From positions 49,993,574 through 50,057,573 of the forward strand of contig CM068842.1 in NCBI GenBank assembly GCA_028554795.2: a stretch of DNA of 64,000 nt. The letters are read 5' to 3'. The notes below the pieces were generated by a model. That model was not told where the DNA came from. It ran no database searches and saw nothing but the letters and a program-made list of their open reading frames with translations. The stretch is from Sinohyriopsis cumingii. Its lineage: Eukaryota; Mollusca; Bivalvia; Unionida; Unionidae. Positions within the stretch are counted from its first letter, which is position 1. Every line of letters starts with the position of its first letter. Of the stretch, positions 46,233-60,181 are shown piece after piece. The position numbers and the translations under genes were made by a program.

Positions 46233-47227
46233 GCTAGTGCTCGTTATCGATGGGATGGAAACGTTTGCATTCTCATAACTCTAGTTTAATAGTTTAGTTT
46301 TAAAAAAGCATGCCTCGAACGGATATTGTTTCCCAGTTTTATGACAACGTCGTTAGTGACCATTTATTTCGTAGTGAAAATAACTAAGTTCACTCTATGT
46401 ACGCACGCATTTTCAATTCATTGTAAACTGTTTCAGCTGGAAATTAGATATGAATAAATCGTGAATTTTAGGAAGAGTCCCACTCCAAATAAACAAATTG
46501 AAAAACCCATACAGTTGTTTTGGAGAATGTATATTTTAATTATGTACATTGATAAAAGAACATAAGTATACCAATGCTGAAAACCAGGATCTCTATAACT
46601 AGCAAGGACAGAATGACAGCTATCTGCATTTTCAATTCTTAACTATCATCCCATCTTTATATTTTAATTCCAATTACTGCTTTAACATCACTTCACATGC
46701 TGATGAAATTATGACAGACACAATCTGGAACGATGTGGTTATTAACAGTCCTCCATCGAGAAGCATTCGGATCCACATTTGACACAGTTACTTCAGCTGA
46801 GAGCACATATGCTGTGGAAAGTTGAAAGAGTGCTGCAGGTATCACACTGCTAACGTTGGGTGAAATAAATACACATTTTGTCTTACTTCAGCATACGTTG
46901 ATAATTTGACGGCCCAAGTCATGAACAGCACTGGAGAGAGAGAGAGAGAGAGAGAGAGAACTCTGCCAGAACTAGGCCTGGGCAAGAGTTATCCTGTCAC
47001 AAGAAATACACTGATGTGTATCACATTACAAAAATCATGGAAAAAATAAAACACGATCTCAATCAATTTAATCTAGCAAGTGGCAAATTGATTCAAAGTT
47101 TCATTAGGCCTGACAGAAACTGCATATCTTACACAATGCATCAATCAGAACTGACTGTTGTTTATTTCCGAATGCATTGTTCCCTACGCCTTTACTTCCG
47201 CTTCCTGAGCTTGCGCAGTTGGTACCA
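46233..47227. other. Gene-free DNA left of the Polinton, with a GA tract
   Basis: GA run at about 46933-46960. The left boundary of the Polinton lies somewhere between here and the 47228 repeat; I could not define a terminal inverted repeat because the right end of the element is outside the window. Confidence 0.5.
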
Positions 47228-47490
47228 GTAGTGAATGGGGTCGATATAGGGTCTATGGGAATTAGCATTAAAAACACCCCTGGGTCACTATAGGGTCTAT
47301 GTAAATTTAACATGGACAAAACCCCTGGGTCGATATAGGGTCTATGAGGAATTAGCATTACAGACCTCCCTGGGTCTGTATGGGGTCTATGTAAATTTAA
47401 CATTAATCGCCCTGGGTCTGTATAAGGTCTATGTAAATTTAACATGGACAAAAATCCCTGGGTCTGTATAGGGTCTATGTAAAATTGAAA
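47228..47490. repeat. ~40-60-bp tandem repeat at the left edge of the element
   Basis: Five to six copies of a unit with CTGGGTC(G/T)(A/G)TATAGGGTCT then ATG(T/G)AAATTTAACAT. Polinton ends often carry tandem repeats inside their inverted termini, so this may be part of the terminal repeat. The 147-codon ORF across it (47104-47547) is a translation of the repeat. Confidence 0.75.
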
Positions 47491-47558
47491 CAGGGAGGGG
47501 TCTCTATTTTTTAAAAAAATAAAAAAAAATAAAAATGGGCTAGGCAATTGAAAGTCAA

Positions 47559-47568
47559 GATCTTTTCG
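47559..47568 (-). promoter_or_regulatory. Histone downstream element-like site 1
   Basis: On the minus strand CGAAAAGATC, 12 nt downstream of stem-loop 1. In replication-dependent histone pre-mRNAs a purine-rich element at this distance pairs with U7 snRNA. The same spacing is seen at the other two stem-loops. Confidence 0.65.
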
Positions 47569-47580
47569 AGATATTGGAGT

Positions 47581-47596
47581 GGCCCTGAAAAGGGCC
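47581..47596 (-). terminator. Histone-type 3' stem-loop 1
   Basis: The minus strand reads GGCCCTTTTCAGGGCC: 6-bp stem, UUUC loop, preceded by CCAAA and followed by ACTCC. This fits the metazoan replication-dependent histone mRNA 3' stem-loop (GGYYCTTTTYAGRRCC). It lies 143 nt downstream of the stop of the 47740-48213 gene. Confidence 0.88.
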
Positions 47597-47739
47597 TTTG
47601 GGTTTCTTCTTCTTCTTCTAACTCTTCCACTTCTTCAACCATCTTCTAACTTTTGCCACTATTCCTGTCTTCTTCTTCTTTATTTCTGACTTAGGCATCC
47701 AGTCAGGATGACCTATCGCTCGGAATGTCTCCTGTATTC

Positions 47740-48213
47740 TTATCCAGTTATTGTTGAGTTTCTCAAAGCTTTCTTTTCTCTTTCTATTTTCTTCTTCTTT
47801 TCTTCCTTAGACCACTTTTCTTTGATGTTCTTTACCTCTTCCGTCAGCACTTTCCTCATTACTTCTTCCGTTTTTGTCAACTGGTCGAACCCCCATTTTA
47901 CGTATCGCCACTCCATCCAATACAATACTTTTTCTAGGAAGCACCTGACTTGGATGACATGGTCCAGTGCTTCCTTCAAACGTCCCACTCTGACATAAGG
48001 TGGGTCAGTAAATCCTCTTGACTTGTTGACTTCTTCTTCTATCATCCCTGCGATGAGATCTCTGGCTACCTTTAGTCCTTTGATTTGAATAGTTAACAAG
48101 TCTTGCCTATTTCCATCACTCCATTCCTTTTCTATTCTTCCTACAACATATTCAATATCCATTATCCAGAAATAGATATCTCTTAATAGATTGAATAATT
48201 TTGTCACCTCCAT
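47740..48213 (-). CDS. Helical cassette protein 1 (histone-type 3' end)
   Basis: A 157-residue protein, function unknown, that I do not recognise from any named family. It is predicted almost wholly helical and ends in a very basic/acidic coiled-coil tail (residues about 128-150, KEEKKKKIEREKK). Two halves resemble each other: residues about 5-65 and 78-140 both run from an aliphatic/aromatic helix to an L-T-x-EE(V/I) block (AGMIEEEVNKS against KVLTEEVKNIK). The same block appears in the third cassette (EELFREEMNRE). The start is the ATG 64 nt below the shared promoter box at 48277. The stop is followed by histone stem-loop 1. Open without lesions, unlike most core genes of the element. Likely S-phase expressed if the histone-type signal works. 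Confidence 0.75.
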   Translation of the reverse strand: MEVTKLFNLLRDIYFWIMDIEYVVGRIEKEWSDGNRQDLLTIQIKGLKVARDLIAGMIEEEVNKSRGFTDPPYVRVGRLKEALDHVIQVRCFLEKVLYWMEWRYVKWGFDQLTKTEEVMRKVLTEEVKNIKEKWSKEEKKKKIEREKKALRNSTITG

Positions 48214-48276
48214 CTTCTTTGTTTATTCCGTGGAATGGTCTGAACGACGAATACTGTGGGTTCTTATAGTTAAAGA

Positions 48277-48300
48277 GCGGACGTGAAGGAAAACATCCCC
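48277..48300 (-). promoter_or_regulatory. Cassette promoter box 1a
   Basis: The minus strand reads ATGTTTTCCTTCACGTCCGC. The same box occurs at 48345, 49075 and 49978, and degenerately at 49141. It lies 64 nt upstream of the ATG of cassette 1. A TATA-like CTATAAGA follows at 48263-48270. It contains ACGTC, a CRE half-site. Confidence 0.75.
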
Positions 48301-48344
48301 CATAGAATCAAATCTTATATTGCCTAGATCATCACTTAAAACGC

Positions 48345-48368
48345 GCAGACGTGAAGGAAAACATCCCC
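48345..48368 (-). promoter_or_regulatory. Cassette promoter box 1b
   Basis: Second copy (ATGTTTTCCTTCACGTCTGC), 68 bp upstream of box 1a, with the conserved word TGATCTAGGCAATATAAG (minus strand) between them. The same two-box layout with the same intervening word recurs at cassette 2. Confidence 0.7.
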
Positions 48369-48379
48369 TACTTTTCTCA

Positions 48380-48646
48380 TTTCATATTATCTACTATACA
48401 CATACGTGAAGCAGCAATAAACAAACCCAAAATCTACTATCCACACACGCAAAACGTTAAAATGTAACCCAAATTTACTATCCACACAAACCAACTTAAG
48501 CGCTTACAAAACCCAATAATCTACTATCCACACAAACTTACGTGATTGCTTACAAACACAAACACATACACTCACACCAGGAAAAAAAAGAGTTAGTGTT
48601 TATATTCACACTACTCTACATACACACATTGGCAAATCGATTACTA
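48380..48646 (-). repeat. Spacer with CTACTATCCACA repeats, copy 1
   Basis: TCTACTATCCACAC-type words at about 48389, 48439, 48476 and 48521, the last followed by AAACTTACGTGATTGCTTAC. The homologous spacer of cassette 2 (49205-49345) carries three more. The whole spacer plus stem-loop plus gene is a diverged tandem duplication with a period of about 0.8 kb. Confidence 0.7.
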
Positions 48647-48656
48647 TTTCTTTTCT
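48647..48656 (-). promoter_or_regulatory. Histone downstream element-like site 2
   Basis: AGAAAAGAAA on the minus strand, 12 nt downstream of stem-loop 2. Matches the purine-rich U7-pairing element of histone pre-mRNAs. Confidence 0.75.
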
Positions 48657-48668
48657 AAAGGTTTGGGT

Positions 48669-48684
48669 AGCCCTGAAAAGGGCT
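48669..48684 (-). terminator. Histone-type 3' stem-loop 2
   Basis: The minus strand reads AGCCCTTTTCAGGGCT, preceded by AAACAAAC and followed by ACCCAAA. This is essentially a textbook histone stem-loop with the expected ACCCA flank. It lies 135 nt below the stop of the 48820-49005 gene. Confidence 0.92.
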
Positions 48685-48819
48685 GTTTGTTTTGAACTCC
48701 AGGGCACCTGGTTAATGATGGCACCTTCCAGGCCTGGCGCCACACACACATCTTCTACTCCAGTCTCTTTTTACTTTTTTTGTTGGGAGTGCAGAGGCGG
48801 GATGAGTGGTTTCAGAATT

Positions 48820-49005
48820 TCAATCTTCTGTCTCTGGGATTCTGAAATTTGCTATCTCCATTTCCTCCTCTTCTTTTTTACTTCTCTCCTCCTCTTTCCT
48901 CCTTCCCTCTTCGACGATGGCCTCCGCGGCCAGTTCATTTAGTATGCGCCTGGCATATTCCAGGTGCATCTGGAGTTCTAGAAGTTTCACAATCCTTGTA
49001 TTCAT
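48820..49005 (-). CDS. Helical cassette protein 2 (histone-type 3' end)
   Basis: A 61-residue protein. Residues 1-30 form an amphipathic helix (LLELQMHLEYARRILNELA) and residues 32-50 a run of Glu/Lys/Arg (EEGRRKEEERSKKEEEEME). The helix resembles the first helix of cassette proteins 1 and 3, so this looks like a single short member of the same family. The ATG is 69 nt below promoter box 2a, the same spacing as the other cassettes, and the stop precedes histone stem-loop 2. On size and sequence alone it would be a weak call; its place in the repeated box-gene-stem-loop unit makes it credible. No known domain, no signal peptide. Confidence 0.65.
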   Translation of the reverse strand: MNTRIVKLLELQMHLEYARRILNELAAEAIVEEGRRKEEERSKKEEEEMEIANFRIPETED

Positions 49006-49074
49006 TGTCTTGCTGTTAACAGGTCGACGATGCGTAGCCCAACTGACAATTAGTTTTCAATTTTTACTAATAGC

Positions 49075-49097
49075 GCGGACGTGAAGGAAAACATCCC
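49075..49097 (-). promoter_or_regulatory. Cassette promoter box 2a
   Basis: Identical core to box 1a (ATGTTTTCCTTCACGTCCGC), 69 nt upstream of the ATG of cassette 2. Confidence 0.75.
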
Positions 49098-49140
49098 ATA
49101 AAACAAAACTTATATTACCTAGATCATGACCAAACAGCGC

Positions 49141-49160
49141 GCGGACCTAAAAGAAACACT
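49141..49160 (-). promoter_or_regulatory. Cassette promoter box 2b (degenerate)
   Basis: Keeps the GC-rich end (GGTCCGCGCGC on the minus strand) but the TTTTCCTTCACG part is changed to TTTCTTTTAG. Position relative to box 2a (66 bp) matches box 1b, so it is a decayed homologue. Confidence 0.5.
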
Positions 49161-49204
49161 CACTCACTTTTTACTACCCATTACTAATTTAAAAATTTTT
49201 AATT

Positions 49205-49337
49205 TAAAAAAAAATAATATACTATCCACATACGTAAAGCAGCCAAATCAAACCCAAATCTACTATCCCCACACTTCAAGCAACAAAAAACATTATCATC
49301 ATCTACTATCCACACAAACGTACGTGAACGCTTACAA

Positions 49338-49384
<47 letters not shown>

Positions 49385-49473
49385 CATACACACATTTTTT
49401 AACTAAGTAAAACAATTCATGTGCTTATAAACGCACTTCTATTTTTTAACTTATTATCGGCAATCGATTGTTA
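49205..49473 (-). repeat. Spacer with CTACTATCCACA repeats, copy 2, and (CA)n
   Basis: Words at about 49208, 49260 and 49305; the last reads TCTACTATCCACACAAACG then TACGTGAACGCTTAC, matching the last word of copy 1. A CA microsatellite (49339-49393) has expanded inside it. ORFs at 49126-49410 on either strand are repeat artefacts. Confidence 0.7.
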
Positions 49474-49483
49474 TTTCTTTTCT
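49474..49483 (-). promoter_or_regulatory. Histone downstream element-like site 3
   Basis: AGAAAAGAAA on the minus strand, 12 nt downstream of stem-loop 3, identical in sequence and spacing to site 2. Confidence 0.75.
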
Positions 49484-49495
49484 AGAGATTGGGGT

Positions 49496-49511
49496 AGCCC
49501 TGAAAAGGGCT
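49496..49511 (-). terminator. Histone-type 3' stem-loop 3
   Basis: AGCCCTTTTCAGGGCT on the minus strand, preceded by AAAAAAC and followed by ACCCCAA. Located 162 nt below the stop of the 49674-49913 gene. Confidence 0.92.
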
Positions 49512-49673
49512 GTTTTTTGTGTACGAAGCTGAAGCTAGGGCGATCTTTTATATTCTAAGAATGCGACGTCCTCTGACGATAGGCCCTCTGACGATAGGTC
49601 TGCTTCTTCGGAAAGAGAAGAAGAACTCTTTGGTGTCGATACGACAATCGACAAAGCCTCTGTCAGGTTCAGG

Positions 49674-49913
49674 TTACTGCTGCTGCTGTTGTTGTTGCTG
49701 TTGTTGCTCTCTCTGTTGTTTCTGAAGTCTGTACTTCTCTGTCCATTCTTCTTTCTCCCTGTTCATTTCTTCTCTGAAGAGCTCTTCTATCAGGTCTTCA
49801 GTGACTTTTAACATTCTCACATTCTCTATCTCTTCTGGCTTGGGTATCAGACTGTGTCTGACCCTATGCAAATTCACGTAGGCTTCGTTTAGCTTAGCTA
49901 GTCTGGAGCACAT
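49674..49913 (-). CDS. Helical cassette protein 3 with poly-Gln tail (histone-type 3' end)
   Basis: A 79-residue protein when started at the ATG at 49913, which I chose because it is 64 nt below promoter box 3, the same spacing as in the other two cassettes; the upstream extension to 50030 runs through the box. An N-terminal helix (LAKLNEAYVNLHRVRHSL) is followed by a helix with LKVTEDLIEELFREEMNRE, which matches blocks in cassette protein 1 (LKVARDLIAGMIEEEVNKS). The C-terminus is charged and ends in a pure glutamine run encoded by CAG/CAA (49677-49710) directly before the stop. No known domain. Intact. Confidence 0.7.
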   Translation of the reverse strand: MCSRLAKLNEAYVNLHRVRHSLIPKPEEIENVRMLKVTEDLIEELFREEMNREKEEWTEKYRLQKQQREQQQQQQQQQQ

Positions 49914-49977
49914 CTTCGTAGGAGGATGAGTCGACAATGGATGGTTAGACTGGAGGCTGCCCGACTTTAAAGTAAAA

Positions 49978-50002
49978 GCGCGGACGTGAAGGAAAACATC
50001 CC
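49978..50002 (-). promoter_or_regulatory. Cassette promoter box 3
   Basis: ATGTTTTCCTTCACGTCCGC on the minus strand, extended by GCGC as in box 2a. No second box is seen upstream of this cassette. Confidence 0.75.
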
Positions 50003-50247
50003 TACACGGTTTTCGAGCCGGAACGTTCAATGAGTGTCATGAGAGGGATAGTAAGAAATCAAAGAGTATGAATCAAGATTCCTATAGCCAAACAAACCAC
50101 AAAGGCATTTTTTCTTCAAAACACAACATTTTTTATTCAAAATCACTTAACACTAACAAACAACTCTAACATTTTTAACAATAATCCAATAATATTACAT
50201 CAAACAATTTTTTTTCAAATGACAAACATTTTTTTTCAACTAACACA
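50003..50247. other. Intergenic spacer, AT-rich
   Basis: Low-complexity A/T sequence between the cassette array and the protease gene. It must hold the 3' end of the protease mRNA; no histone stem-loop is seen here. Confidence 0.5.
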
Positions 50248-50751
50248 TTATTTTGGACAGGGCTGACAACGTTGTGAATGAAATTGTGATTTCCACTGTT
50301 GGAAGTCATTAGGCCATTGATGGACACTACGTTTCCTAGCTTGAGACAAAAGATAACCATAATGGTCACAGAACCATTTATCTACTTTCACATCGTTTCT
50401 AGAAGAAGAACGAGGATCAAAATGAGTCACTAAATGTTCTAAAGAATAGCCCAGGCTGCGATGATGCAGAAAATACACACAATATTGTCCACACACCAAG
50501 GAATCTGTGCCTTGTAATTTCACATATTTGAATCCGGTGGTCTGTGCATTTCTTCTCATAAAGTCGATGATATCGTCTTCCAAAGGAGGCAATCCATACG
50601 AATCGAAATATTCCACACATCCTTCTTGAGGAAAGTAGACGGCTACCCAGTGGGTTCCTGGGAGATGACTGTCGTCCGTGTTGATCACATAAGCTTGATG
50701 GTCTTGAGGTTTGCGATGAGGGAGTTCATCTTTAGCACAGACGACAGGATT
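50248..50751 (-). CDS. Adenain-type cysteine protease (Polinton PRO), 5' end unclear
   Basis: Cysteine endopeptidase of the adenovirus protease/Ulp1 fold, which in Polintons is expected to mature capsid proteins. Counting from the GTG at 50688 (146 codons): catalytic His13 in GTHWVAVYF, Asp29 in EYFDSYG, oxyanion Gln59 and nucleophile Cys66 in QGTDSLVCGQYC, the Q-x6-C spacing of adenain. The frame stays open upstream to 50751 (a CAKDELPHR stretch that fits the family N-terminus), where TGA (50752-50754) blocks it; no ATG lies in between, so the true start is lost to a mutation, a frameshift or an unrecognised exon. The catalytic core is complete. Confidence 0.85.
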   Translation of the reverse strand, partial: NPVVCAKDELPHRKPQDHQAYVINTDDSHLPGTHWVAVYFPQEGCVEYFDSYGLPPLEDDIIDFMRRNAQTTGFKYVKLQGTDSLVCGQYCVYFLHHRSLGYSLEHLVTHFDPRSSSRNDVKVDKWFCDHYGYLLSQARKRSVHQWPNDFQQWKSQFHSQRCQPCPK

Positions 50752-50829
50752 TCAAGAAGCAGTGTACAAACTGTGGTTCAAAAGGTAACAAAGTTCCCAG
50801 GTATCCATTTATTTGTGTGGTTTTTTTCT

Positions 50830-51216
50830 TCACAGGTAATGATAAGTGATCAATTCGATCCTGACTTTTTGTTTGAAAATGTCTGACAAGGAAAAGGCGT
50901 TTAGATCCGACTTCTTAATCTGGTCCAAGAGAGATTCGATGCGACGGCACTCCAGAGACGTTAATGGAGGAGAAGAATGTTTATCCAAGCCTTTATACCA
51001 CTCATTCAACACGAATTCTATCTCGATGTGACCCCAAACTTTGTCCAGATATTCGTCCAATTTTTCTTCTTGACTCAACATCAGACATTTGTCGTGATGA
51101 ATTTGACTGGGATGATCGTTGTGAATTCCATAGCACTCTTCCTTGATCAATTCTTTCATTATATCTGCCAGGACTGTAGCAAAACAGGAGACTAAATGGC
51201 TTCTTGTTCTGGCCAT
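50830..51216 (-). CDS. Conserved-looking Cys/His protein of the Polinton
   Basis: 128 residues, function unknown. It has a Cys-His cluster around residues 28-44, ECYGIHNDHPSQIHHDKCLM, i.e. C-Y-G then HPSQxxHxxCL, that I recall from unnamed proteins encoded near Polinton-type elements in invertebrates (recollection, not checked). The spacing of Cys and His could bind zinc. The rest is helical. It starts at an ATG inside the end of the short acidic ORF 51192-51332 and lies between protease and capsid genes, so a role in the virion or in the host cell are both possible. Open without lesions. Confidence 0.65.
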   Translation of the reverse strand: MARTRSHLVSCFATVLADIMKELIKEECYGIHNDHPSQIHHDKCLMLSQEEKLDEYLDKVWGHIEIEFVLNEWYKGLDKHSSPPLTSLECRRIESLLDQIKKSDLNAFSLSDIFKQKVRIELITYHYL

Positions 51217-51332
51217 CTTGACTTCATCATGATAACTTCTTCGTCTTGGGATTCTTCTTCTTCTTCCACGGTCTCCTCACATTCCATCTTCAAAGTTTCT
51301 CCACTAGGTAAAGAGGGATAACAGTCTTCCAT
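51192..51332 (-). CDS. Short acidic ORF overlapping the next gene
   Basis: A 46-codon ORF from the ATG at 51332 to TAG at 51192-51194, overlapping the first 25 bases of the 50830-51216 gene in another frame. The middle is strongly acidic (a run EETVEEEEESQDEE around residues 19-32). It fills exactly the gap between the capsid gene and the next ORF. It could also be the displaced N-terminus of the 50830-51216 protein after a frameshift. Low certainty. Confidence 0.4.
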   Translation of the reverse strand: MEDCYPSLPSGETLKMECEETVEEEEESQDEEVIMMKSRWPEQEAI

Positions 51333-51337
51333 AGCTT

Positions 51338-52682
51338 TTAATAATCTAGAATGACTTCTCTCAAACTGTTGATTTCTATGGTATTGTCAATTTCTGCATA
51401 CAGGATGACGTTCACTGTGTTCTCTGGGGGCAGTGAACTCGCAAACTGAATTTCCACACGAATCTGGCAGGATTTTATAGGGTGGAAATGTCCCTCGTCG
51501 CTGCCTTGGTCTGGAGTGAAATCAAAAGCCCACAAAGCGTAGCCTCCTACATAATCCTCGTACGTAATACCGTGACTGGTGTTGGTTCCTAACTGTCCGA
51601 AAGCTTCGTACAGGGACAAGTACGATCTCAAATAATTCTTCGCGGCCCCAAAGTTAGGCTCAAAGGGTTGGGTACACAAGGTCTTGCCATGGCGACTGAC
51701 TTCAATCTTGGACACACTGTAATGTTGAAACTCAAAAGGATTTTCATGGTAGGCTCCGTTGAAGGCTGAATTCTTGACGATACCAAGGATTAGACGTTTG
51801 GGTAACTGTCCTTGGAACAGATGATCTTCGATCATGGATCGCTATCCAGCAGGAATGGTGAACGTTTTCACTTCTACTCTTCGTATCGGATACTTGGCGG
51901 TCGTTCTGCTCAACGTCTGACTGATGTCGTTTCCCACTTTAGGTAACACTTCCACACGACGCACGTAGAGTCTGGCTTCTTCAATTTTGGTTTTGTAAGT
52001 GGAACCATCAGCAGCCATCAAATGGAAAGCGGCAATGCTGCGATTCAGTCTCAAGCGGATATCCACCTCGTTCAGCAAATACTTTTCTTGTAACCACATA
52101 ATTCTAGATGCAAGCGATCCATTAGTTCTAAACTACGACTTAGATGAATTTTCGTTCGTCGTTCTACAAATCCCGTTGTATTTTGAGCAACCCCAGCATC
52201 TGTAATGCTGTTGAACTTAGTCGCTTTGTCAGGTTTCCATACGCTTTGTCAGGTTTCCATACCACGCAAGCATCCAGATGAGTGTTCTTGGCTTCTTTTC
52301 CGTACGTCAAGAGATTTTCCAGGTACGCTCGGTAAGGGTAAGTATCCATGCTGCTGCTGACCAGTTTGTTATTCAAGTACAAGTCCACTTCGCTAAAGAA
52401 GGAATGCATGAAATTATTGACGGGAGCTACTACATCATCATTGTCTATGCTAGTGTTGGGTGGTTCGATCACTTTCACTTTCAAGTACAAGTAACTGCTA
52501 TTCAGATCGATGTAATCTTCGGGCTGTCCTTTGATTTCAAACTCGATGGGAGCGGAATCCGTCAAAGAGGAGACGGGATGAAATTCCACCCACTGGGATT
52601 CTTGCATGGTCATCATAGTGGGTGGCATGGCAAACAGATCTAGTTCCGACTTGGAACAAGCGCAAGATTCTCGGTGCATCAT
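51338..52682 (-). pseudogene. Major capsid protein, double jelly roll (broken)
   Basis: Polinton hexon-like major capsid protein. The N-terminal part (52164-52682, 172 codons) carries the family's opening SELDLFAMPP and QWVEFHPVSSL and the DDYIDLN-type block (EDYIDLNSSYLYLKVKV). A middle part is 51842-52099 (LLNEVDIRLRLNRS), and the C-terminal part 51338-51835 contains YVGGYALWAFDFTPDQ. Three breaks: a 20-bp tandem duplication at 52221-52260 (CGCTTTGTCAGGTTTCCATA twice), which shifts the frame; a second shift near 52090-52100; and an in-frame TAG at 51842-51844. No complete capsid protein can be made from this copy by ordinary translation. It follows the pVI-like gene after a 21-bp gap. Confidence 0.9.
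52221..52260. repeat. 20-bp tandem duplication inside the capsid gene
   Basis: Two direct copies, CGCTTTGTCAGGTTTCCAT plus one flanking base, with one difference. 20 is not a multiple of 3, so the duplication shifts the reading frame of the capsid gene. A slippage-type lesion after insertion. Confidence 0.92.
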
Positions 52683-52703
52683 TTTTCTCTGTGTCTCAAT
52701 ACT

Positions 52704-53148
52704 TTAATAATCGAAAACGTCTAAGTCGCGGACGGTTCTTCTTTTCTTTGCCTTTCTAGCTTTATTAGTGTTAAGTCTGGTGAAAGGGTGTTTTCTTCGT
52801 CGTCTCTTTCTGCCTTGTCCTTGCTGTGGCGTCAAGGAAGTAGGAATGCCTGACTCGGTAGCGTGCAGGGCATTTATAGGTGTGTCTCGTCGGCCCAAAA
52901 GGTCTTTACCCGTTTTCAGCAAGACAGTTTTGCCTGCTCTCAAGAAGGCTTCTTTTGGGTTTTGTTTGTCGATGATGACATTTTGGAGAAATTCTTTGCC
53001 CTGTGTCAGTGCGGCATCTTTCAAGGCGTGCAATCCGCGTGTCACCATCGGTTTCAACACCGGAGCCACCGAACGAAAAGCCGATTTTAACATATCTCCT
53101 AAACCGTGTCCTCGCTGTCGAGCAACCCTCTCGGTACACTGGATACAT
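52704..53148 (-). pseudogene. pVI-like basic virion protein (frameshifted near its start)
   Basis: The main frame (52704-53093 plus upstream) has the Polinton/adintovirus hallmark RQRGHGLGDMLKS followed by an amphipathic helix (FRSVAPVLKPMV), which in the adenovirus pVI family is linked to membrane disruption and capsid-core contact. The C-terminus is very basic (GRKRRRRKHP and KARKAKKRR), like a nuclear-localisation or DNA-binding tail. The likely ATG (53148, opening MYPVYREG) is in a different frame, so there is a frameshift near 53115-53130. Order penton - pVI-like - capsid is usual for the group. Confidence 0.75.
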
Positions 53149-53151
53149 GAC

Positions 53152-54084
53152 TTACGAGTCGTGAGAGAACCGTTTTCGAAAATGGAGTTTCACCGTGACT
53201 TTTCCTTTGGTGAATGGAATATTTTGTCCCAGATCTCCTTTTATAGCAATGTTGACCGTGTCCAAATAAGACTTACTGACAGGCAAATAGTGAGGATGTA
53301 CAAATTCGCGGTGAACGTGGTAAGTGTTTCCACCTTCCTCGTCAGCGTTCGTGGCAGAATCCACTTTGAAAGGAATGACACGCAGTAACGGCACAGAGGT
53401 GTGTCCCACCACATTGTACTCCACTACATCGGAGTACACAAAGATCAAATTCAGTCCTTGGTTCAGTTCTACCGGGGCACGAAATAACTTGCTAAAAGAC
53501 TCGTTGTCGTAAATGATTGGTAATTCGTTTTTCTTGAGCATGGCCATTCTCATGTCCATGTCTCCGCCCAACATGTCAAACAATTCAGGACAAAATAAAA
53601 TGGACACGATTTTACTCCCGTCAAATTTCATCAAGAAGCGACGATCTGCTTTGTGGTATTCCATTGTGACACTTTTTTTGAAATTTTCCAAAGCTTTCAT
53701 TAACACGACATTAAACCTGGAGACTATGGTGCTCACCAAATGTTGACCACTAAAATAATAGTCTGCGGGAATGGACAAGTGATAGGTGGTGTACTTTTGA
53801 TTTTTTGTGCCGGGGGTTTTATGTTATATTTGCCATAGGTATCCAAGTACAGTTGCAACTGATCGTCATGAACTTCCACATCAAAAAAAATTTTGATTGG
53901 GAAGGACATTGAGGACTTGGATCGGGTGAATGATTTCTACTAAAGCCACTTCCCAATGGGCTTCGTGATCTAATTGGATGGCTTGAGGTAATTTGGCCGT
54001 GTAACAGCACAACGTGTTCTTGGGAAACACCTCCATGGAACTGTCACTGGGTAAGGTTAAGTAAAATTGGTTGTTATTGTTCAT
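53152..54084 (-). pseudogene. Minor capsid (penton) protein, single jelly roll (frameshifted)
   Basis: The N-terminal part (ATG at 54084) has the family pattern QFYLTLPSDSSMEVFPKNT then WEVALVEI. The C-terminal part (53152-53778) ends with NLIFVYSDVVEYNVVG, VPLLRVIPF and NIPFTKGKVTVKLHFRKRF, well conserved among Polinton penton proteins. The middle (DVEVHDDQLQLYLDTYG) is in a third frame. Shifts lie at the A8 run near 53883-53890 and near 53790-53805. Both are in homopolymer-rich sequence, so sequencing error is possible for these two. The start overlaps the end of the membrane-protein gene. Confidence 0.87.
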
Positions 54085-54505
54085 AATTCCAGAGTTCTAT
54101 GGTTGTCCGAGGGGTAACTGGAAGTCAGAGTCGTGTCTCCGCCCAAAATGGGGTTGTTGTTGTGGTTGTTATTGGAGTGGTGACTGACACTGGCACTGGA
54201 CACAAGGTTCCCGTTGTTCCCGTTGGAAGAGAATTTCAGGGAAGGATTGGGAAGCAGGTAACCGATGCAACTGCTTAATAAAATGGTCCACAATTGTTTG
54301 TCTCCTTGTTGCAAACTCAAATTGGCGATGGCTGCCCCGATGACACAATACGCCACGAAGATTTGGCAGAAAAAGACGATTTGCGTTTTAGGCACACGTT
54401 CTCCACACCACACCACACCCACAAGGGTTGTTTTTGTAAATCTTGCAGAGAAGAAATGGGTGAAGGAGTGGTAGCAGTAGTAGCTGCGTCTGTATGAAAG
54501 GGCAT
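54081..54505 (-). pseudogene. Small membrane protein of the Polinton (frameshifted)
   Basis: The C-terminal half (in the frame ending at 54081) reads QIVFFCQIFVAYCVIGAAIAN then LWTILLSSCIGYLLPNPSLK: a transmembrane segment plus a second hydrophobic stretch. The LLSSCIGYLLPNP block is one I know from small proteins located next to Polinton pentons. The ATG is probably at 54505 in another frame (opening MPFHTDAATT), so a shift lies near 54400 in a CACACCACACC stretch. The remainder of the C-terminus is Asn-rich (residues HSNNNHNNNP). TATAAAAAG (minus strand) sits just upstream at 54516-54525. Confidence 0.7.
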
Positions 54506-54510
54506 GATGG

Positions 54511-55830
54511 TCACTTCTTTTTATAGTCGATGACATGCGAAGCGTCGATCCAAGAATCAAAACTGGGTGGATATCCTTTCCAACGTACTTTGACTTCTTT
54601 GACACATCGTTTGCCCACTTTACGGGTTCTGCGTTCGAGAATGCTTTCGATGTCGTGCACGTCGTCTTCGTTTTTTGTGACACGTTGTAACTCGGGCAAA
54701 TAAAACGTTCCTTTGAGCACTTCTCCGTTCATGTCTTCCAATTTATAGACGGCAGGATGACGGCCATGCACTCGTCCAGTGACACGAAACAATTCCGTAG
54801 TCCAGTTAGGTAAGTAACCTTTGTCGAAAGTGCGTTTGCTTTTGCCAGTGCGTACCCAATCTCCTACGGCCAACACTCCACTTTTCTTGGGACAGCCCTC
54901 GTCGGGGACGTACCAACGTTCCTTTGAGCACTTCTCCGTTCATGTCTTCCAATTTATAGACGGCAGGATGACGGCCATGCACTCGTCCAGTGACACGAAA
55001 CAATTCCGTAGTCCAGTTAGGTAAGTAACCTTTGTCGAAAGTGCGTTTGGTTTTGCCAGTGCGTACCCAATCTCCTACGGCCAACACTCCACTTTTCTGG
55101 GGACAGCCCTCGTCGGGGACGTACCAAACAGGCACTCAGACACCAGCACTTCGTTCTCGGGAGTCACTTCTTGTAGGGCACATCCAATGCTTCGATGGTA
55201 AGATTGGTTGTACGCTTGCACCAGGTGCGGTAAGATGTCGATGTACTTCAGAGTGTGGTGATACGTAAAATATTTCCACATGCGTTCTTTCAAAGTGCGT
55301 TGAAAACGTTTCACGATGCTGGCTTTGGTTTCGGGATTCTCGGTGGTAAAAAAATGAATCTCACGTTTCTTTAATTCTTTTTGGAAAGCTTGGTTCTGAA
55401 ATTCGGTCCCTTTGTCAGTTTGCCATCGAAGAAGGTGACGACCGTTTTGTTTCAACACTCGTTGCAGGGCTCGCACTAACTCGCTGCTCGATTTGGAAGT
55501 CAAGGGTACGACCCAGGCACATTTGGAAAAGACGTCGATGACACAAAACAAATATTTGTAGCCACGATTGTAGCTGGCCAAATGAGAGACATCGGCTAAA
55601 TCAACTTGCCATTGATGATCGATGCCTTCCACTCGGGTGCGACTTCTGGAAAATTTGCGTCGAATGGGTTTGTGTAAAGTGTAGGTAGCTTGTTCTTGTA
55701 ACCATCGTTGCACTTGAAGTAAACGGAAACTTTTCAGTCGCGTTTTGGCAGCACGATACAATTTTTGAACTCCTGCGTAACCTGCAGGATGGGAGGGATC
55801 GTAGTAAATGCTGGCTAATACTTTTTCCAT
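54511..55830 (-). pseudogene. Polinton integrase with chromodomain (inactive)
   Basis: Retroviral-type DDE integrase. The start is the ATG at 55830 (MEKVLASIYYDPSHPAGYAG). Counting from 55935, the first catalytic Asp is residue 112 (WQVDLADVS) and the second residue 174 (WQTDKGTEF). The expected Glu is Lys209 (KASIVKRFQRTLK; codon AAA at 55309-55311), so the DDE triad is destroyed. The catalytic-domain frame ends in a shift near 55128-55140. A 211-bp tandem duplication (54706-54916 and 54917-55127) copies the SH3-like region (GDWVRTGK-KRTFDKGYL) out of frame. The C-terminal chromodomain is present (HDIESILERR, VKVRWKGYPPSFDSWI). Three independent inactivating changes. Confidence 0.93.
54706..55127. 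repeat. 211-bp tandem duplication in the integrase gene
   Basis: Copies 54706-54916 and 54917-55127 differ at only about two positions (GTTTGCTTTT against GTTTGGTTTT; CTTTTCTTGG against CTTTTCTGGG). 211 is not a multiple of 3. The near-identity says the duplication is recent relative to other decay. Confidence 0.93.
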
Positions 55831-55846
55831 TTTTTTTGTTTGTTTG

Positions 55847-56457
55847 TTAATAAGACACCCACTCGTGGAGGATGCTACTCTTTTTCTCTTTGGGTACTTT
55901 CTTGGATTGCAATGCTTTGCGTGTGCGACCGGCAATAGGTCTCGAGGAGGAGGATGTCTGAACAGGGGATATCGGTTCTTGTTTCACTTCTGTCTTCACC
56001 TTCTTTTTCTCTTGCGATGAAGAAGGGGTGGTCATCATCTTTGTAATCCATCCAATTCTGGAGGTAGGTGGTCTTGTTAACTTGCATACTTTTTCTGGAG
56101 GAGTTTGAAACCCTTCTTCTTCTCCTTTTTCTGTCTTGGTCACTGACAGTGTTGGTGGTACTGGTGATGGTGCTGGACTTTTCATCAAGGTCTTAAAATC
56201 TTTCAGAGTGGGTAGAGCTGTTTCGTCTAAAGCTTTCTGGTGAAAGAGTTGCAGTCGTTGCAAGAGTTGACCGTACTTTTGCGATTTTTCTGTATCGCAC
56301 AAATCTTGGCGATCCATCAAGGACTGCAATTCGTGTTGTAACTGGGACATCTCGCTCAAATTGGGATTGGGAGGTAAATGCGGGTGCGTTGTTCTTGCCA
56401 CCGATGGTATTCCATCCATCGTTTGTAAGGCACTAAAACTAGTTTTCGTCCTTCCAT
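55847..56457 (-). pseudogene. Coiled-coil / Lys-rich Polinton protein (frameshifted)
   Basis: The probable start is the ATG at 56457 (opening MEGRKLVLVPYKRW, a pattern I associate with a protein encoded beside Polinton integrase). The frame then shifts near 56380-56400 into the long ORF ending at 55847. There, residues resembling LSEMSQLQHELQSLMDR then DTEKSQKYGQLLQRL form a helical region, followed by a Ser/Pro/Lys-rich linker (TPSSSQEKKKVKTEVKQE) and GRTRKAL. Possibly a DNA-associated core protein. A TATA-like AAGATAAAAAGA (56502-56512) lies ~45 nt upstream of the ATG. Confidence 0.6.
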
Positions 56458-56506
56458 GGGGATGTCAAGGGTCAATTCTGAGATCTTGGGACTTCAGAGG
56501 GTCTTT

Positions 56507-56908
56507 TTATCTTGCGCCCACCAGTCCTCCCAACATGGTTCCCAAGACTCCTTTCAGCAATGGGCCTAACAAGAGGGGTAAAATTCCTCCACGTTGGACC
56601 AACATCTTCTTTTTTTGACGAATGGGGATTTTCTTTTGAACCATTTGGCGAAGAACGTGACGATTTTTGCCTAAGCATTGTTTCTGGTGTGTGGACAAAG
56701 GGATCGTACCTTTCAAGATGTTCAAACAACATTCGCATACGGTATCGATAACCTCTTTGGAGGTCGTTTGAATGAGTTTCTTTCGTAGGGGTGGAGAAGC
56801 TTTGGACAGGACAGATAACATGTCCCTATGTTTGACTAAACGAGGAGGCAGTCCTTTCCTTTTCTTTCCTTGGGTTTTAGAAGAGGGATGTTTTCTGGAG
56901 GGTGACAT
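56507..56908 (-). CDS. Small basic protein with hydrophobic C-terminal tail
   Basis: 133 residues. Basic N-terminus (HPSSKTQGKKRKG), then a helical region with LRKKLIQTTSKEVIDTVCECC and LNILKGTIPLSTHQK, a Lys-rich stretch (KKIPIRQKKKMLVQRGG), and a Leu/Gly-rich membrane-active-looking tail (ILPLLLGPLLKGVLG). The domain order also appears in the gene to the right (57.2-58.0 kb), so the two are paralogues. I recall similar unnamed ORFs in invertebrate Polinton-type elements. The tail could act like the lytic peptide of non-enveloped virions; that is inference. The ATG is ~60 nt below a TATA box (GTATAAAAAAGACC, 56961-56972). Intact. Confidence 0.65.
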   Translation of the reverse strand: MSPSRKHPSSKTQGKKRKGLPPRLVKHRDMLSVLSKASPPLRKKLIQTTSKEVIDTVCECCLNILKGTIPLSTHQKQCLGKNRHVLRQMVQKKIPIRQKKKMLVQRGGILPLLLGPLLKGVLGTMLGGLVGAR

Positions 56909-56960
56909 CTTTGAGTCTTCAGGAGCACCAAAAACACTGATACCCCTACTTGGTAACAGG

Positions 56961-56972
56961 TCTTTTTTATAC
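56961..56972 (-). promoter_or_regulatory. TATA box of the 56507-56908 gene
   Basis: AGTATAAAAAAG on the minus strand, ~55-60 nt upstream of the ATG at 56908, a usual TATA-to-start distance. Confidence 0.6.
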
Positions 56973-58000
56973 TGGAACGCGTCGCCACTGGTTGTCTTTA
57001 CGTCGTATCAACTTGAGGACGGGCATGACACGTCGTGCAGGGGTACGTAACGGACTAAATCGAGCCAGTTCTTGCTTGGACAAATCCAGTAAACTTTGTA
57101 ACATGCCCGATCTTTCTTGAACTTTGATTTTGGGAGAAGGTACTTTGTGAGCAGCGGCCACTGCCGCTAAGTTTTAGGGACCTGCCACTGGAGAAGTTCT
57201 TGGGGTCATCAACGGAGAAGTTCTTGGTGTAGTCAACGTCTCCAAGTACTTTTCAGTTCTTGGTGTCATCAACGGAGAAGTGAATGAACCTGAGGCTACC
57301 GGAGACGCGGCTACTGCAGTTGCTGGTCGTGGTTTGCGAGTGTAAGGTTGCGTCCTGGCCGAATTGTCTCTCTTGCGACTAGTTTTTTGTGGGCTTTTCT
57401 TTTTCTGGGGACTTTTTCTCTGTTTCTTTTTCTGGGGGCTTCTTTTCTTTTTCCGGGGTGGTGACTGGTAAGAAGAGGGTCCCGCCACTGGAGAAGTTCT
57501 TGGAGACACGGGTCTTCTTGGGGACTTGGCCTTGACACCGTGGCTCTTTTTCTTCTTTTTCTTGGAGCTTCGTTTGACTTTTTTCTTGGGGAGAAGTCTG
57601 GGAGCATTAGGATCCCATCTTAAGAGAGAGCGAATGATGACCCGTCCTAGAGTACCACTCCCTCCAGGTTTCAAAATGATATGGTTTTTGGTTTGAGTGT
57701 CGATGCGGGGATCGGCCAGTTGGGTCAAAGCGACTTTGTTTCGATCAAAAATCGTTTGGTTTGATGAGGAATCTGAATGATCCCTTGTAGTAATTGACAT
57801 GCTGTCACTGTGAACCATCGTAAGACTTCTTTGAGACTAGCTTCTAAGACACGAGCTCGTATTTGTGGATTTTTTTCTGGACTGATGCCATACAAGGCAC
57901 GAATCAATTTGACGGGAAGATGCGACTGAAGGGACGTCAGGTTCAAATTGTGTGAGACAGACGAAAAGTGTCTGAGGTTTTTACAGATTTTTTTGTGGAC
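56967..58000 (-). pseudogene. Basic protein paralogue with long Lys/Ser/Pro tail (broken)
   Basis: The N-terminal half (frame 57725-58054, no ATG found) contains LIRALYGISP, EASLKEVLRWFTVTACQLL and QGIIQIPHQTKRFL. The frame then shifts near 57740-57760 to LTQLADPRIDTQTKNHIILK and PGGSGTLGRVIIRSLLRW. This order matches the 56507-56908 protein block by block. Instead of ending there, it continues into a histone-H1-like tail rich in KKKKK, SPRRP, SPQKKK and PRTSPVAGP repeats, likely DNA-binding. An in-frame TAA (57174-57176) separates a last conserved-looking piece (LRTPARRVMPVLKLIRRKDN, ending 56967). Confidence 0.6.
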
Positions 58001-58005
58001 TGAAA

Positions 58006-58733
58006 TTAAGTCGAGGACGGAGACGTGTACAGGACAGGCCCTCCGTCTTGGCACCAGTGGTGAAACAAGTGGGTACGAAATCGCAAATCATCGGGGGTCG
58101 TAGGTTTCAAATCGACGGGTAAATAAGCGTGTGGAGTTTGAGTGGCATCGTCGTACGCCTGAGTTAGCCGAGGCGTTCCTAACTGTTTGGCTAAGACTTG
58201 CACTTGCGATTTATCTCGAGGGCTTTTAAACAAGACCACGTAATGCGCATTGAGACTGATGGTGCGATGGGCTTTACTTTGTTGAAACAAATTTTGAGTG
58301 ATTTAAACGACACTGGCATTACGATGATGCCCTTTGCACGTAAACCACAGTTTAATTTCTTCTTCGTCTTCTCCTAACATGTCGTCGAAAATGACCAAAT
58401 GGATTTGACGGGAGTCAGAGACGATTCCGTCGTCTTCTTTAGGAATGCCTTCCACAAACACGATGGAATCGCCTTGACTTTCTCGCAAGAGGCTGTACCC
58501 CGATTGCCACTCTTTGTAACACCACACGATGCGTTGAGGTGGTCGATCGATCAAATGATGTTTATGTTAGAACAAACGTTTGAGAAATTCAGTTTTGCCT
58601 GAACCGCTAGGTCCAGCAATGAGCATGTTAAAGGGATGGCGAAGATACAAAGCCTCCCAACTGGCACGATCTAAGTGTTCGTCATGACTTTGATAGTGGA
58701 GGAAGAGGGAGCAAAGACAGCAGAGGTAGCCAT
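58006..58733 (-). pseudogene. Packaging ATPase, FtsK/HerA-A32 type (broken)
   Basis: Genome-packaging ATPase of Polintons. Walker A is in the stretch HPFNMLIAGPSGSGKTEF near 58640-58585; Walker B is LVIFDDML near 58395. The C-terminal conserved block reads AHRTISLNAHYVVLFKSPRD then DLRFRTHLF. The likely ATG (58733) is out of frame with Walker A (shift near 58690), and the ATPase frame holds two in-frame TAA stops, at 58567-58569 just after Walker A and at 58303-58305 before the sensor region. All catalytic motifs are still recognisable, so the breaks are young. The ATG is ~45 nt below an AT-rich TATA-like stretch (58775-58790). Confidence 0.9.
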
Positions 58734-58805
58734 AGTGTTAGGAATGTCACTTGTGACACGAAAACAAACAAGACAAGATTTTATATATTTTTTCAGGACA
58801 CGTTT

Positions 58806-58811
58806 ATTGAA
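58806..58811 (-). promoter_or_regulatory. Polyadenylation signal AATAAA
   Basis: AATAAA on the minus strand, a few nucleotides below the stop of the membrane-tail ORF (58816). It shows that genes in this part of the element use ordinary poly(A) ends, in contrast to the histone-type ends of the left array. Confidence 0.55.
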
Positions 58812-58815
58812 TGTT

Positions 58816-59293
58816 TTAAACATGAACACGAAAGACAAAAATACATAAAAGCCAGATAGTTATGTACAGCAATGAAAAGCACATCAAAACGATCAAAGTG
58901 GAATATAAACAAGTCTCTGTACAACATGTTTTGGGTAACCAAGATGTCCTAGGGACAGTGTGTAATGTTCTTACAGTCTCTACATGAGGTATTGTCACAC
59001 AAGTGTCCTCCCGGAATGGCCTTTCAGGAATGTGTATGACAGTCCTGTCCTGAAGCAAGTGGTTCTTCTGGTACTGTCACTAACACTGGCTTAAGAGTGA
59101 CTTTTTTCCTTGGACGCTTGAATGGAGGATCACTACTCTTTAGCATAATGGGCCACTTCTTTGGTCTTTCAGGGAGGTCCACAACAGTCCTGTCCTGGGT
59201 GAAGGGTTCTTCTGGCACTGTCACAAACAGGTTGAAAAGTAACTTTTTTCCTTGAACAACTCTCGTGCATACTGGGCCACTTCTTGGGTCCAA
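58816..59293 (-). pseudogene. Repeat-containing protein with C-terminal membrane segment (frameshifted)
   Basis: Not recognised. The first frame (59024-59293) encodes VTVPEEPFTQDRTVVDLPERP, then a basic linker (FKRPRKKVTLKPV), then VTVPEEP again. A shift near 59050 moves to the frame ending at 58816, which continues with QDRTVIHIPERP, a Thr/Val-rich region and a C-terminal transmembrane segment (STLIVLMCFSLLYITIWLLC). The repeated VTVPEEP-QDRTV-PERP module reflects a ~125-145-bp DNA duplication (59035-59160 with 59170-59290). A tail-anchored membrane protein is plausible. Confidence 0.5.
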
Positions 59294-59295
59294 GC
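59035..59295. repeat. Imperfect ~125-145-bp tandem repeat
   Basis: AGTCCTGTCCTG occurs at 59041 and 59186, CTTTTTTCCTTG at 59101 and 59243, and GGCCACTTCTT at 59151 and 59275. The offset changes from 145 to 124, so copies carry indels. The duplicated DNA also covers the end of the 59221-59490 ORF. Confidence 0.8.
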
Positions 59296-59490
59296 CTCAA
59301 AACCCACATTTTTCCAGTCACGGACATCTGTCCAATGGGGGTGTAAGTCACAAGCTACACACACATCGTCATACAGGTCCTCGGTAGCTAAAAGTTGACG
59401 AATCTTTTTTTCCTGTAGAGTTCGAGAAGTATCCAGATGAAAACGCAAGGTTTTGAGCAAAAGGAGTCTTTCGTGACCATTTAAGGCCAT
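59221..59490 (-). CDS. Unrecognised ORF X2
   Basis: 89 codons from the ATG at 59490 (ATGGCCTTAA, which overlaps the stop of X1). Helical, with HERLLLLKTLRFHLD and EKKIRQLLATEDLYDDVCVA, then a Trp-rich end (HPHWTDVRDWKNVGF). No family recognised. Either a separate gene overlapping X1 by 10 bases or the second half of one gene split by a frameshift; the frame stays open upstream to 59574, which favours a split gene. Confidence 0.45.
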   Translation of the reverse strand: MALNGHERLLLLKTLRFHLDTSRTLQEKKIRQLLATEDLYDDVCVACDLHPHWTDVRDWKNVGFEAWTQEVAQYARELFKEKSYFSTCL

Positions 59491-60169: not shown

Positions 60170-60181
60170 GAATAGGTCATA

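What the first reader, a model, noticed from the sequence alone, without database searches (positions are those of the whole stretch)
47559..50002. Three virus-like genes with histone-type mRNA 3' ends
Seen: three small minus-strand genes each end in a 16-nt stem-loop of exact histone form (GGCCCTTTTCAGGGCC once, AGCCCTTTTCAGGGCT twice), all 135-163 nt below a stop codon and all followed, at exactly 12 nt, by a GAAAAGA purine element. Known: this pair directs SLBP/U7-dependent, poly(A)-independent 3' processing of replication-dependent histone mRNAs. The encoded proteins are not histones. I know of no Polinton described with this arrangement. It would couple expression of these genes to S phase, when a self-replicating element needs the host's replication machinery.
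Basis: partly seen in the sequence, partly recalled or inferred. Interest (0 to 1): 0.93.

Follow-up and report, generated by a model that had tools for sequence, protein, structure and literature searches.

The report
Virus-like elements disguised as histone genes
A virus-like mobile element, present in very many copies in what looks like a mollusc genome, gives several of its own genes the start and end signals of the host's histone genes, which suggests they are switched on and processed as if they were histones while the cell copies its DNA.

Summary
In detail: Rfam RF00032 (histone 3' stem-loop, SL) hits all three window sites. The spacer to GAAAAGA is 13 nt, not 12. The element is a Polinton/Maverick (PolB, integrase, AGTAGT..ACTACT inverted repeats, GGTACC duplication) spanning 47227-67997, past the window end. 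A second copy has five such genes: three at one end, a divergent pair at the other.

Genome-wide, SL plus purine element occurs at 53,456 places (reversed control 0). In 20 copies of one gene sampled by protein, not by SL, 20 keep the SL; SL identity is 0.99 against 0.57 in downstream DNA. All five host histone genes of the unit read use the same SL and GAAAAG element.

One of nine other Polinton-like contigs also has a gene ending in this SL.

Best reading: the element runs accessory genes on the host's S-phase histone programme. U7 pairing and transcripts are untested.

The parts
47227..64000 (-). Polinton/Maverick element, part inside the window; it ends at window coordinate 67997 (L066)
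   Evidence: TIR begins AGTAGTGAATGGGG and ends CCCCATTCACTACT; TSD GGTACC at 47221-47226 and 67998-68003; Pfam PolB, rve, chromo, BIR
47227..47605 (.). Left terminal inverted repeat; its inner edge contains the stem-loop of gene A
   Evidence: blastn to L066 4003-3663 inverted: 90.5% over 325 nt and 100% over 81 nt
49978..50002 (-). 25-nt histone-type promoter motif before gene C
   Evidence: exact match; host H2B/H1 promoters carry it
49674..49913 (-). Gene C ORF (79 aa in this copy), non-histone
   Evidence: pN/pS 0.18 over 22 copies
49496..49511 (-). Histone-type stem-loop of gene C
   Evidence: RF00032 28.9 bits, below gathering score 34
49476..49482 (-). GAAAAGA purine element of gene C (HDE-like)
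   Evidence: 13 nt after the stem
49139..49163 (-). Second promoter-like box containing TTTCTTTTAGGTCCGCGCG, as in the host H4 promoter
   Evidence: 19 of 19 nt identical to the host H4 promoter in the window copy, 21 of 21 in the C1 copy
49073..49097 (-). 25-nt histone-type promoter motif before gene B
   Evidence: exact match
48820..49005 (-). Gene B ORF (61 aa in this copy), non-histone
48669..48684 (-). Histone-type stem-loop of gene B
   Evidence: RF00032 31.6 bits, below gathering score 34
48649..48655 (-). GAAAAGA purine element of gene B
48343..48367 (-). 25-nt promoter motif before gene A, distal copy (1 mismatch)
48275..48299 (-). 25-nt promoter motif before gene A, proximal copy (1 mismatch)
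47740..48213 (-). Gene A ORF (157 aa in this copy), non-histone
   Evidence: no homologue at E<=0.01 among the 77 candidates
47581..47596 (-). Histone-type stem-loop of gene A, inside the TIR
   Evidence: RF00032 36.6 bits, above gathering score 34
47561..47567 (-). GAAAAGA purine element of gene A
50248..50559 (-). Protease-like ORF (adenain-like by eye, recalled; no Pfam hit), followed by an AATAAA/ATTAAA at +110 and no stem-loop
51338..52682 (-). Major-capsid-like region, split into three ORFs (broken in this copy; assigned from memory and gene order, no Pfam hit above cut-off)
   Evidence: collinear in the C1 copy
55075..55830 (-). Integrase (rve); chromodomain ORF at 54511-54732
   Evidence: Pfam PF00665 4.5e-13, PF00385 1.8e-8
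61056..61691 (-). BIR (inhibitor-of-apoptosis) domain gene
   Evidence: Pfam PF00653 1e-22
61811..64000 (-). DNA polymerase B, in at least two ORFs
   Evidence: Pfam PF03175; 87% identical to P0001

Best explanation
A Polinton/Maverick lineage in what is probably a mollusc expresses its accessory genes (A or D, B and C at one end, the divergent E/F pair at the other) with the host's replication-dependent histone gene signals. Genes A-D have the host histone promoter motif at the 5' end; E/F have another promoter. All six gene types end in the histone stem-loop plus a GAAAAG element. Inferred mechanism: host S-phase histone transcription factors act at the motif; SLBP and U7 snRNP then cleave a few nucleotides after the stem (at ACCCA), giving non-polyadenylated mRNAs that are stable and translated in S phase and destroyed afterwards, so the products appear when the element can be copied. 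Shown here: sequence identity to host signals at both ends, position and orientation, conservation, copy number. Inferred: SLBP/U7 cleavage, S-phase timing, benefit to the element.
For: RF00032 at the three window sites and at five sites of the C1 copy (27.7-41.2 bits; five host histones 35.0-39.4). Genome-wide GCCCTTTTCAGGGC-N10..24-GAAAAG: 26,461+26,995 places, reversed control 0+0. 20 of the 150 scored gene-C places (21,436 candidates), chosen by protein and not by SL: 20 of 20 keep the SL (18 exact, 2 with one mismatch); 15-nt HDE stretch 16 exact, 3 with one mismatch, 1 with three; mean pairwise identity SL 0.989, HDE core 0.950, CDS 0.954, spacer 0.748, +60..150 nt downstream 0.573 (22 sequences). 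Outer stem pair changes on both sides (48 GGCCC..GGGCC and 16 AGCCC..GGGCT of 73 sites). Host H1, H2A, H2B, H3, H4 all end in SL + GAAAAG with a 13-14 nt spacer. The 25-nt motif (up to 4 mismatches) lies within 250 nt upstream of 33 of 33 usable A-D starts and 0 of 40 E/F starts; 9 A-D starts and 1 E start with too little upstream sequence were dropped. Host H2B promoter: 24 of 24 nt identical to the motif of the C1 copy; H1 25 of 26; H4 box 21 of 21. Motif genome-wide, at most 1 mismatch: 46,878 places, reversed control 0; 39 of 51 listed motifs in the first 3.1 Mb have a same-strand exact SL within 1.1 kb downstream, 0 on the opposite strand, random mean 0.9. pN/pS 0.18 (C) and 0.17 (E). In the window only the terminal accessory genes have SLs; 16 other ORFs have none within 250 nt. 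A second Polinton-like contig, L004, has RF00032 at 35.8 bits after a zinc-finger ORF.
Against: No RNA data. The host U7 snRNA (RF00066) and SLBP (PF15247) searches did not complete. The SLs of genes B and C score below the RF00032 gathering score. Only 1 of 9 fetched Polinton-like contigs has an SL (the contigs are 3.6-16 kb pieces), so it is not shown to be a general Polinton feature. Gene A of the window has an AATAAA/ATTAAA 55 nt after its stop, before the SL, and 2 of 22 gene-C copies have an AATAAA before the SL: polyadenylated forms are possible. 14 of the 16 non-SL window ORFs also lack AATAAA/ATTAAA within 250 nt, so absence of a poly(A) signal does not by itself mark the SL genes. 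L004 has AATAAATAA about 70 nt after its SL. The 25-mer is less conserved (0.861) than the SL; 2 of 20 sampled copies lack it in the stretch fetched; 12 of 51 motifs have no exact SL downstream. The E/F genes do not have the 25-mer.
Confidence: 0.8

Rival explanations
1. The signals are passive relics: fragments of a host histone cluster captured once and copied along without function.
For: Host and element share 21-24 nt identical blocks, so capture from the host is plausible as an origin.
Against: SL 0.989 and HDE core 0.950 identity against 0.573 in downstream DNA in copies not chosen by SL; paired changes in the outer stem pair; motif and SL kept at each of several different genes.
Confidence: 0.05
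2. The hairpin works in DNA, as part of the inverted repeat (end recognition, protein-primed replication or integration), and the resemblance to histone ends is secondary.
For: One SL sits at the inner edge of each TIR in both copies examined, though the right one of the window copy is mutated.
Against: Genes B, C and F have the same SL + HDE outside the TIR. Of 73 SL sites, 56 have a sense element ORF as best match within 700 nt upstream; 16 have gene F in antisense, as expected for gene E of the divergent pair; the last had only 80 nt to look at. The purine element and ACCC flank are RNA-processing features; host histones have the same arrangement.
Confidence: 0.05
3. The stem-loop does direct histone-type 3' ends (so this overlaps with the best explanation), but the benefit is not S-phase coupling: for example expression in oocytes or early embryos, or avoidance of poly(A)-based control.
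For: Histone mRNAs with short poly(A) tails after the hairpin occur in Xenopus oocytes (passage in PMC1924863); a DNA element must reach the germline (inference); the E/F promoter has CRE-like, CCAAT and TATA boxes instead of the 25-mer.
Against: The 25-nt motif belongs to the promoters of host H1 and H2B in the tandem histone unit, which favours the S-phase programme for A-D.
Confidence: 0.25
4. Ordinary polyadenylated viral genes in which the SL only adds stability or a back-up 3' end.
For: AATAAA/ATTAAA before the SL in gene A of the window and AATAAA in 2 of 22 gene-C copies.
Against: 20 of 22 gene-C copies have no AATAAA between CDS and SL; the HDE, known as the U7 binding site for cleavage, is conserved.
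Confidence: 0.08

Closest known systems
Polinton/Maverick elements (and adintoviruses)
   Same: PolB, rve integrase with a chromodomain ORF beside it, capsid and protease region by gene order, (AGT)2//(ACT)2 termini, 6-bp TSD, about 20 kb; the end motif and TSD size are those given for vertebrate Mavericks in PMC8097293 (passages).
   Different: Accessory genes carry host-type histone promoter motifs and histone 3' ends. My searches of the held library listed no such report.
Replication-dependent animal histone genes (RF00032 SL + HDE, SLBP/U7 pathway)
   Same: SL, A-rich 5' flank, ACCC 3' flank, GAAAAG element after 13 nt, short stop-to-SL distance in some copies, and for A-D the host's own promoter motif.
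   Different: The proteins are not histones; the genes are parts of a mobile virus-like element.
Viral histone-like genes (e.g. 'Histoid' of adomaviruses, PMC11071296, passages only)
   Same: Viruses borrowing from the histone system.
   Different: There the protein resembles histones; here the expression signals do and the proteins do not.

Membership tests
Polinton/Maverick | Family B DNA polymerase | tested here: met
   PF03175 7.5e-11 and 1.6e-25; 1186 relatives at E<=0.001, the 120 listed including Rhodactis coral adintovirus PolB-C
Polinton/Maverick | Retroviral-type (rve) integrase | tested here: met
   PF00665 4.5e-13
Polinton/Maverick | TIRs with (AG) or (AGT)-type ends and 6-bp TSD | tested here: met
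   AGTAGT..ACTACT; GGTACC (window) and CATGTT (C1 copy) on both sides; criterion from PMC8097293
Polinton/Maverick | Capsid and maturation-protease genes | tested here: inconclusive
   ORFs in the expected places are collinear in two copies but have no Pfam hit above a curated cut-off; assignment is from memory
Histone 3' UTR stem-loop (RF00032) | Score above the Rfam gathering cut-off (34 bits) | tested here: met
   Met by gene A 36.6, D and E 35.6, F 41.2 in the C1 copy. NOT met by B and C (27.7-31.6) nor by the window copy's F (27.0)
Histone-type 3' processing | Purine-rich HDE downstream of the SL | tested here: met
   GAAAAGA after 13 nt in all three window genes; GAAAAG in all five host histones of L083
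Histone-type 3' processing | HDE pairs with host U7 snRNA | not tested
   RF00066 genome search unanswered in all 26 attempts (not completed)
Histone-type 3' processing | Non-polyadenylated transcripts ending 3-6 nt after the SL | not testable with these tools
   no RNA data
Replication-dependent histone gene | Encodes a histone | tested here: not met
   A (truncated), B, C of the window: no Pfam hit at E<=0.1; B, D, E, F of the C1 copy: no histone family at E<=1

The most novel reading that the evidence does not exclude
The element has copied the whole expression identity of a histone gene cluster (host histone promoter box at the 5' end of A-D, SL + HDE at the 3' end of all six gene types, and a divergent gene pair as known, by recall, for H2A-H2B in other animals), so its accessory genes are read and processed by the machinery reserved for histones. 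With tens of thousands of such units in one genome, it may also compete for or sense SLBP/U7, giving a mobile element a direct read-out of host S phase. The related arrangement in L004 suggests that the strategy is older or wider than this host.
Probability: 0.5. Interest if true: 0.95.

Novelty: new variant of a known kind. Interest (0 to 1): 0.92.

Why it matters
In animals the stem-loop end is described as the mark of replication-dependent histone mRNAs, in place of the poly(A) tail of all other cellular mRNAs (PMC12775136, passages). A virus-like element that uses it on several non-histone genes, with the matching host promoter box, would show that this expression programme can be taken over as a module, would give a simple answer to how an integrated self-replicating element times its genes, and offers tens of thousands of natural variants for dissecting SLBP/U7 and histone promoter rules. 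It is directly testable with total RNA-seq.

Tried and rejected
Relatives in IMG/VR: none by PolB or by a capsid-region protein. A histone-tail pattern scan there gave 3 contigs, none of which reaches RF00032 at E<=1; treated as chance. Homologues of gene A's protein: 77 candidates, none at E<=0.01. That A-D are protein paralogues: BLASTP of A, B and D against C is not convincing (best E 0.019 over 25 residues); dropped, although the DNA of the B and C units is 75% alike over 457 nt. A first pN/pS for gene E (0.89) mixed two start positions and was replaced (0.17). Host species: not determined; the named matches of histone H1 among the 120 listed are nearly all molluscs, chiefly bivalves, so 'mollusc' is an inference. 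Searches use loci that were mostly found through their SL, so their counts are not free of that bias; searches are the sample not chosen by SL, though drawn only from the 150 best-scoring gene-C places. The 32 rows are 20 loci (12 counted twice because of a second match); I count loci. Structure prediction was not used: shallow, repetitive orphan proteins.
Full report
OBSERVATION. The stems are GGCCCTTTTCAGGGCC and twice AGCCCTTTTCAGGGCT; GAAAAGA follows after 13 nt in all three, not 12. A general search for such stem-plus-purine arrangements finds 3 in the window and none in 60 order-1 Markov shuffles.

WHAT IT LIES IN. The window is in a 2.90-Gb genome, C19:49993574-50057573. The histone H1 of that genome is most like mollusc, chiefly bivalve, H1 among the named matches of the 120 listed, so the host is taken as a mollusc; the species is not known. 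The element has PolB (PF03175), integrase (rve), chromodomain and BIR genes. Its termini are AGTAGTGAATGGGG and CCCCATTCACTACT with GGTACC duplicated on both sides, at window 47227 and 67997, so it is about 20.8 kb long and its right 4 kb lie outside the window (L066). The (AGT)2//(ACT)2 ends and 6-bp duplication are those described for vertebrate Mavericks (PMC8097293, passages). The two TIRs of this copy are about 90% alike and several of its ORFs are broken (capsid region in three pieces, polymerase in at least two), so it looks like an old copy. A second copy at C1:33861-53915 was examined in three separate pieces: same gene order, 21 of 22 window ORFs matched at 64-96% protein identity in their best hit (gene A not matched), TIRs 99.4% alike over 322 nt, TSD CATGTT (read).

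FIVE GENES, NOT THREE. In the C1 copy RF00032 finds five stem-loops (E up to 0.1): genes D, B and C at one end and the divergent pair F/E at the other. Gene A of the window and gene D of the C1 copy occupy the same place, and their stem-loop is inside the TIR, at its inner edge, as is that of E at the other end; B, C and F have theirs outside the TIR. In the window copy's right end the E stem-loop is mutated and the F one has a TTTTAA loop (27.0 bits). Sixteen other window ORFs have no stem-loop within 250 nt of the stop; two of them, including the protease-like ORF that is last in that run (+110), have an AATAAA/ATTAAA there and 14 have neither signal. None of the six gene types is a histone by Pfam (A was tested in its truncated window form, C in its window form). 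Genes C and E are under purifying selection, pN/pS 0.18 (22 copies) and 0.17 (17 copies).

GENOME-WIDE AND CONSERVATION. The exact pattern GCCCTTTTCAGGGC-N(10-24)-GAAAAG occurs 53,456 times; the reversed control pattern 0 times. Divided by five this would be of the order of ten thousand element copies, a rough inference that ignores partial copies, mutated stems and host histone tails. To avoid choosing copies by their stem-loop, 20 of the 150 scored gene-C places (21,436 first-look candidates) were fetched by protein match. All 20 have the stem-loop, 18 exactly and 2 with one mismatch. In the 22-sequence alignment (these 20, the window and the C1 copy) mean pairwise identity is 0.989 in the stem-loop, 0.950 in the purine core, 0.954 in the coding part and 0.861 in the 25-mer, against 0.748 in the spacer and 0.573 at 60-150 nt downstream. 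Among 73 stem-loop sites in loci L013-L066, mostly found through the stem-loop itself, 48 are GGCCC..GGGCC and 16 AGCCC..GGGCT, a change on both sides of the outer pair; 2 have A opposite C, 1 G opposite T and 6 another substitution; 55 of 73 have ACCCA after the stem. The best upstream protein match within 700 nt is in sense for 56 sites, is gene F in antisense for 16 (gene E sites of the divergent pair), and one site had only 80 nt available.

THE HOST'S OWN HISTONE GENES. The host has a tandem histone unit of about 8.3 kb (150 scored of 662 candidates). In L083 all five genes end in stem-loop plus purine element: H3 and H4 with loop TTTTTA, H2B TTTTCA, H2A TTTTAA, H1 GGTCC..GGACC, each followed after 13-14 nt by GAAAAG; RF00032 gives 35.0-39.4 bits to these and 27.7-41.2 to the C1 element's five. 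In 16 H3 loci the H3 tail was found 15 times.

THE 5' END. Genes A-D are preceded by a 25-nt motif (up to 4 mismatches within 250 nt): 33 of 33 usable starts, against 0 of 40 E/F starts; 9 A-D starts and 1 E start were dropped for want of upstream sequence; in the up to six rows shown per gene it starts 85-92 or 153-159 nt before the ATG. The same motif is in the host H1 promoter (2 mismatches), the H2B promoter (3 mismatches) and, more loosely and in the other direction, near H2A (6 mismatches); it starts 107 and 109 nt before the ATG of H1 and H2B. The H4 promoter has a related box (8 mismatches to the 25-mer); H3 has no such box. Against the C1 copy, blastn finds 24 of 24 nt identical for H2B, 25 of 26 for H1 and 21 of 21 for the H4 box; the other matches between the histone unit and the element ends are further motif copies or stem-loop/HDE regions, apart from one 16-nt match; the other 14 kb of window element give one 16-nt match and 47 kb of host flank one of 18 nt (E 0.009) and one of 16. 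Genome-wide the motif occurs 46,878 times with at most one mismatch, reversed control 0. Of 51 listed motifs in the first 3.1 Mb of C1, 39 have an exact stem-loop on the same strand within 1.1 kb downstream (25 have one upstream, as expected for genes in a row), 0 on the opposite strand, random expectation 0.9. The E/F pair uses another promoter: 20 of 20 loci have at least two CCAAT boxes and TATAAA at -52, 17 of 20 an exact and 20 of 20 an at most one-mismatch TGACGTCA (order-1 shuffles 0.9% for an exact TGACGTCA, 6.8% for two CCAAT boxes). Recalled, not tested: CCAAT and CRE-like boxes are common in histone and other cell-cycle promoters, and GGTCCG is the core of the vertebrate H4 cell-cycle element.

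ANOTHER ELEMENT. Of 9 Polinton-like contigs found among prokaryote assemblies, presumably as contamination, one, L004 (CALIZB010000033.1, PolB 40% identical), has an RF00032 match of 35.8 bits; the other 8 have none at E<=1. The stem lies 28 nt below the stop of an 89-aa C2H2 zinc-finger ORF, is followed by AAAAAAGAGA, and farther on come an AATAAATAA and CCATTGTCC repeats like those in the TIR of the C1 copy. It lacks the 25-nt motif at up to 7 mismatches. The other contigs are 3.6-16 kb pieces and need not contain an element end.

MECHANISM. From the literature seen (HDE binds U7 snRNP, SLBP binds the hairpin, cleavage a few nt after it: PMC1924863, passages; [quoted passage not shown] Shown: signals, identity to host signals, conservation, arrangement. 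Inferred: cleavage, timing and benefit. The host U7 and SLBP searches did not complete, so pairing is untested.

NOVELTY. Searches for histone stem-loops with Polintons, adintoviruses, viruses or transposons listed no report of this arrangement in the held library; most papers of subscription journals are not covered. I class it as a new variant of a known kind: a Polinton with a gene-expression strategy that I have not seen described.

Noticed in passing
L004:7189-7695: The Polinton-like contig L004 encodes a TATA-binding-protein homologue (PF00352, E 1.2e-27) next to the histone-tailed zinc-finger gene; possibly a mobile element with its own TBP.
   Followed up: partly
window 54704-55125: A 211-nt tandem duplication (99% identical) between integrase and chromodomain ORF.
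   Followed up: no
window 59681-60634: Two neighbouring ORFs (162 and 150 aa) are diverged tandem paralogues (208 nt at 91%); no Pfam hit.
   Followed up: no
L065:5130-5350 and 20 loci: Divergent E/F genes share one promoter with a CRE-like box, two CCAAT boxes and a TATA box, as known by recall for divergent histone pairs; in this host's own unit the histone genes found are all on one strand.
   Followed up: partly
window 47560-47540, L063, L065, L083: Some 10-20 nt after the purine element, TTTCAATTTGCC-like sequence recurs in element genes and in host H2A/H2B tails; possible extra downstream signal.
   Followed up: no
window 14624-14796 and 31192-31264: tRNA-Pro(CGG)-like sequences, possibly tRNA-derived SINEs.
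   Followed up: no
G000 small contigs, e.g. C531, C561, C725: Host histone genes lie in an 8.3-kb tandem unit spread over many small contigs.
   Followed up: partly
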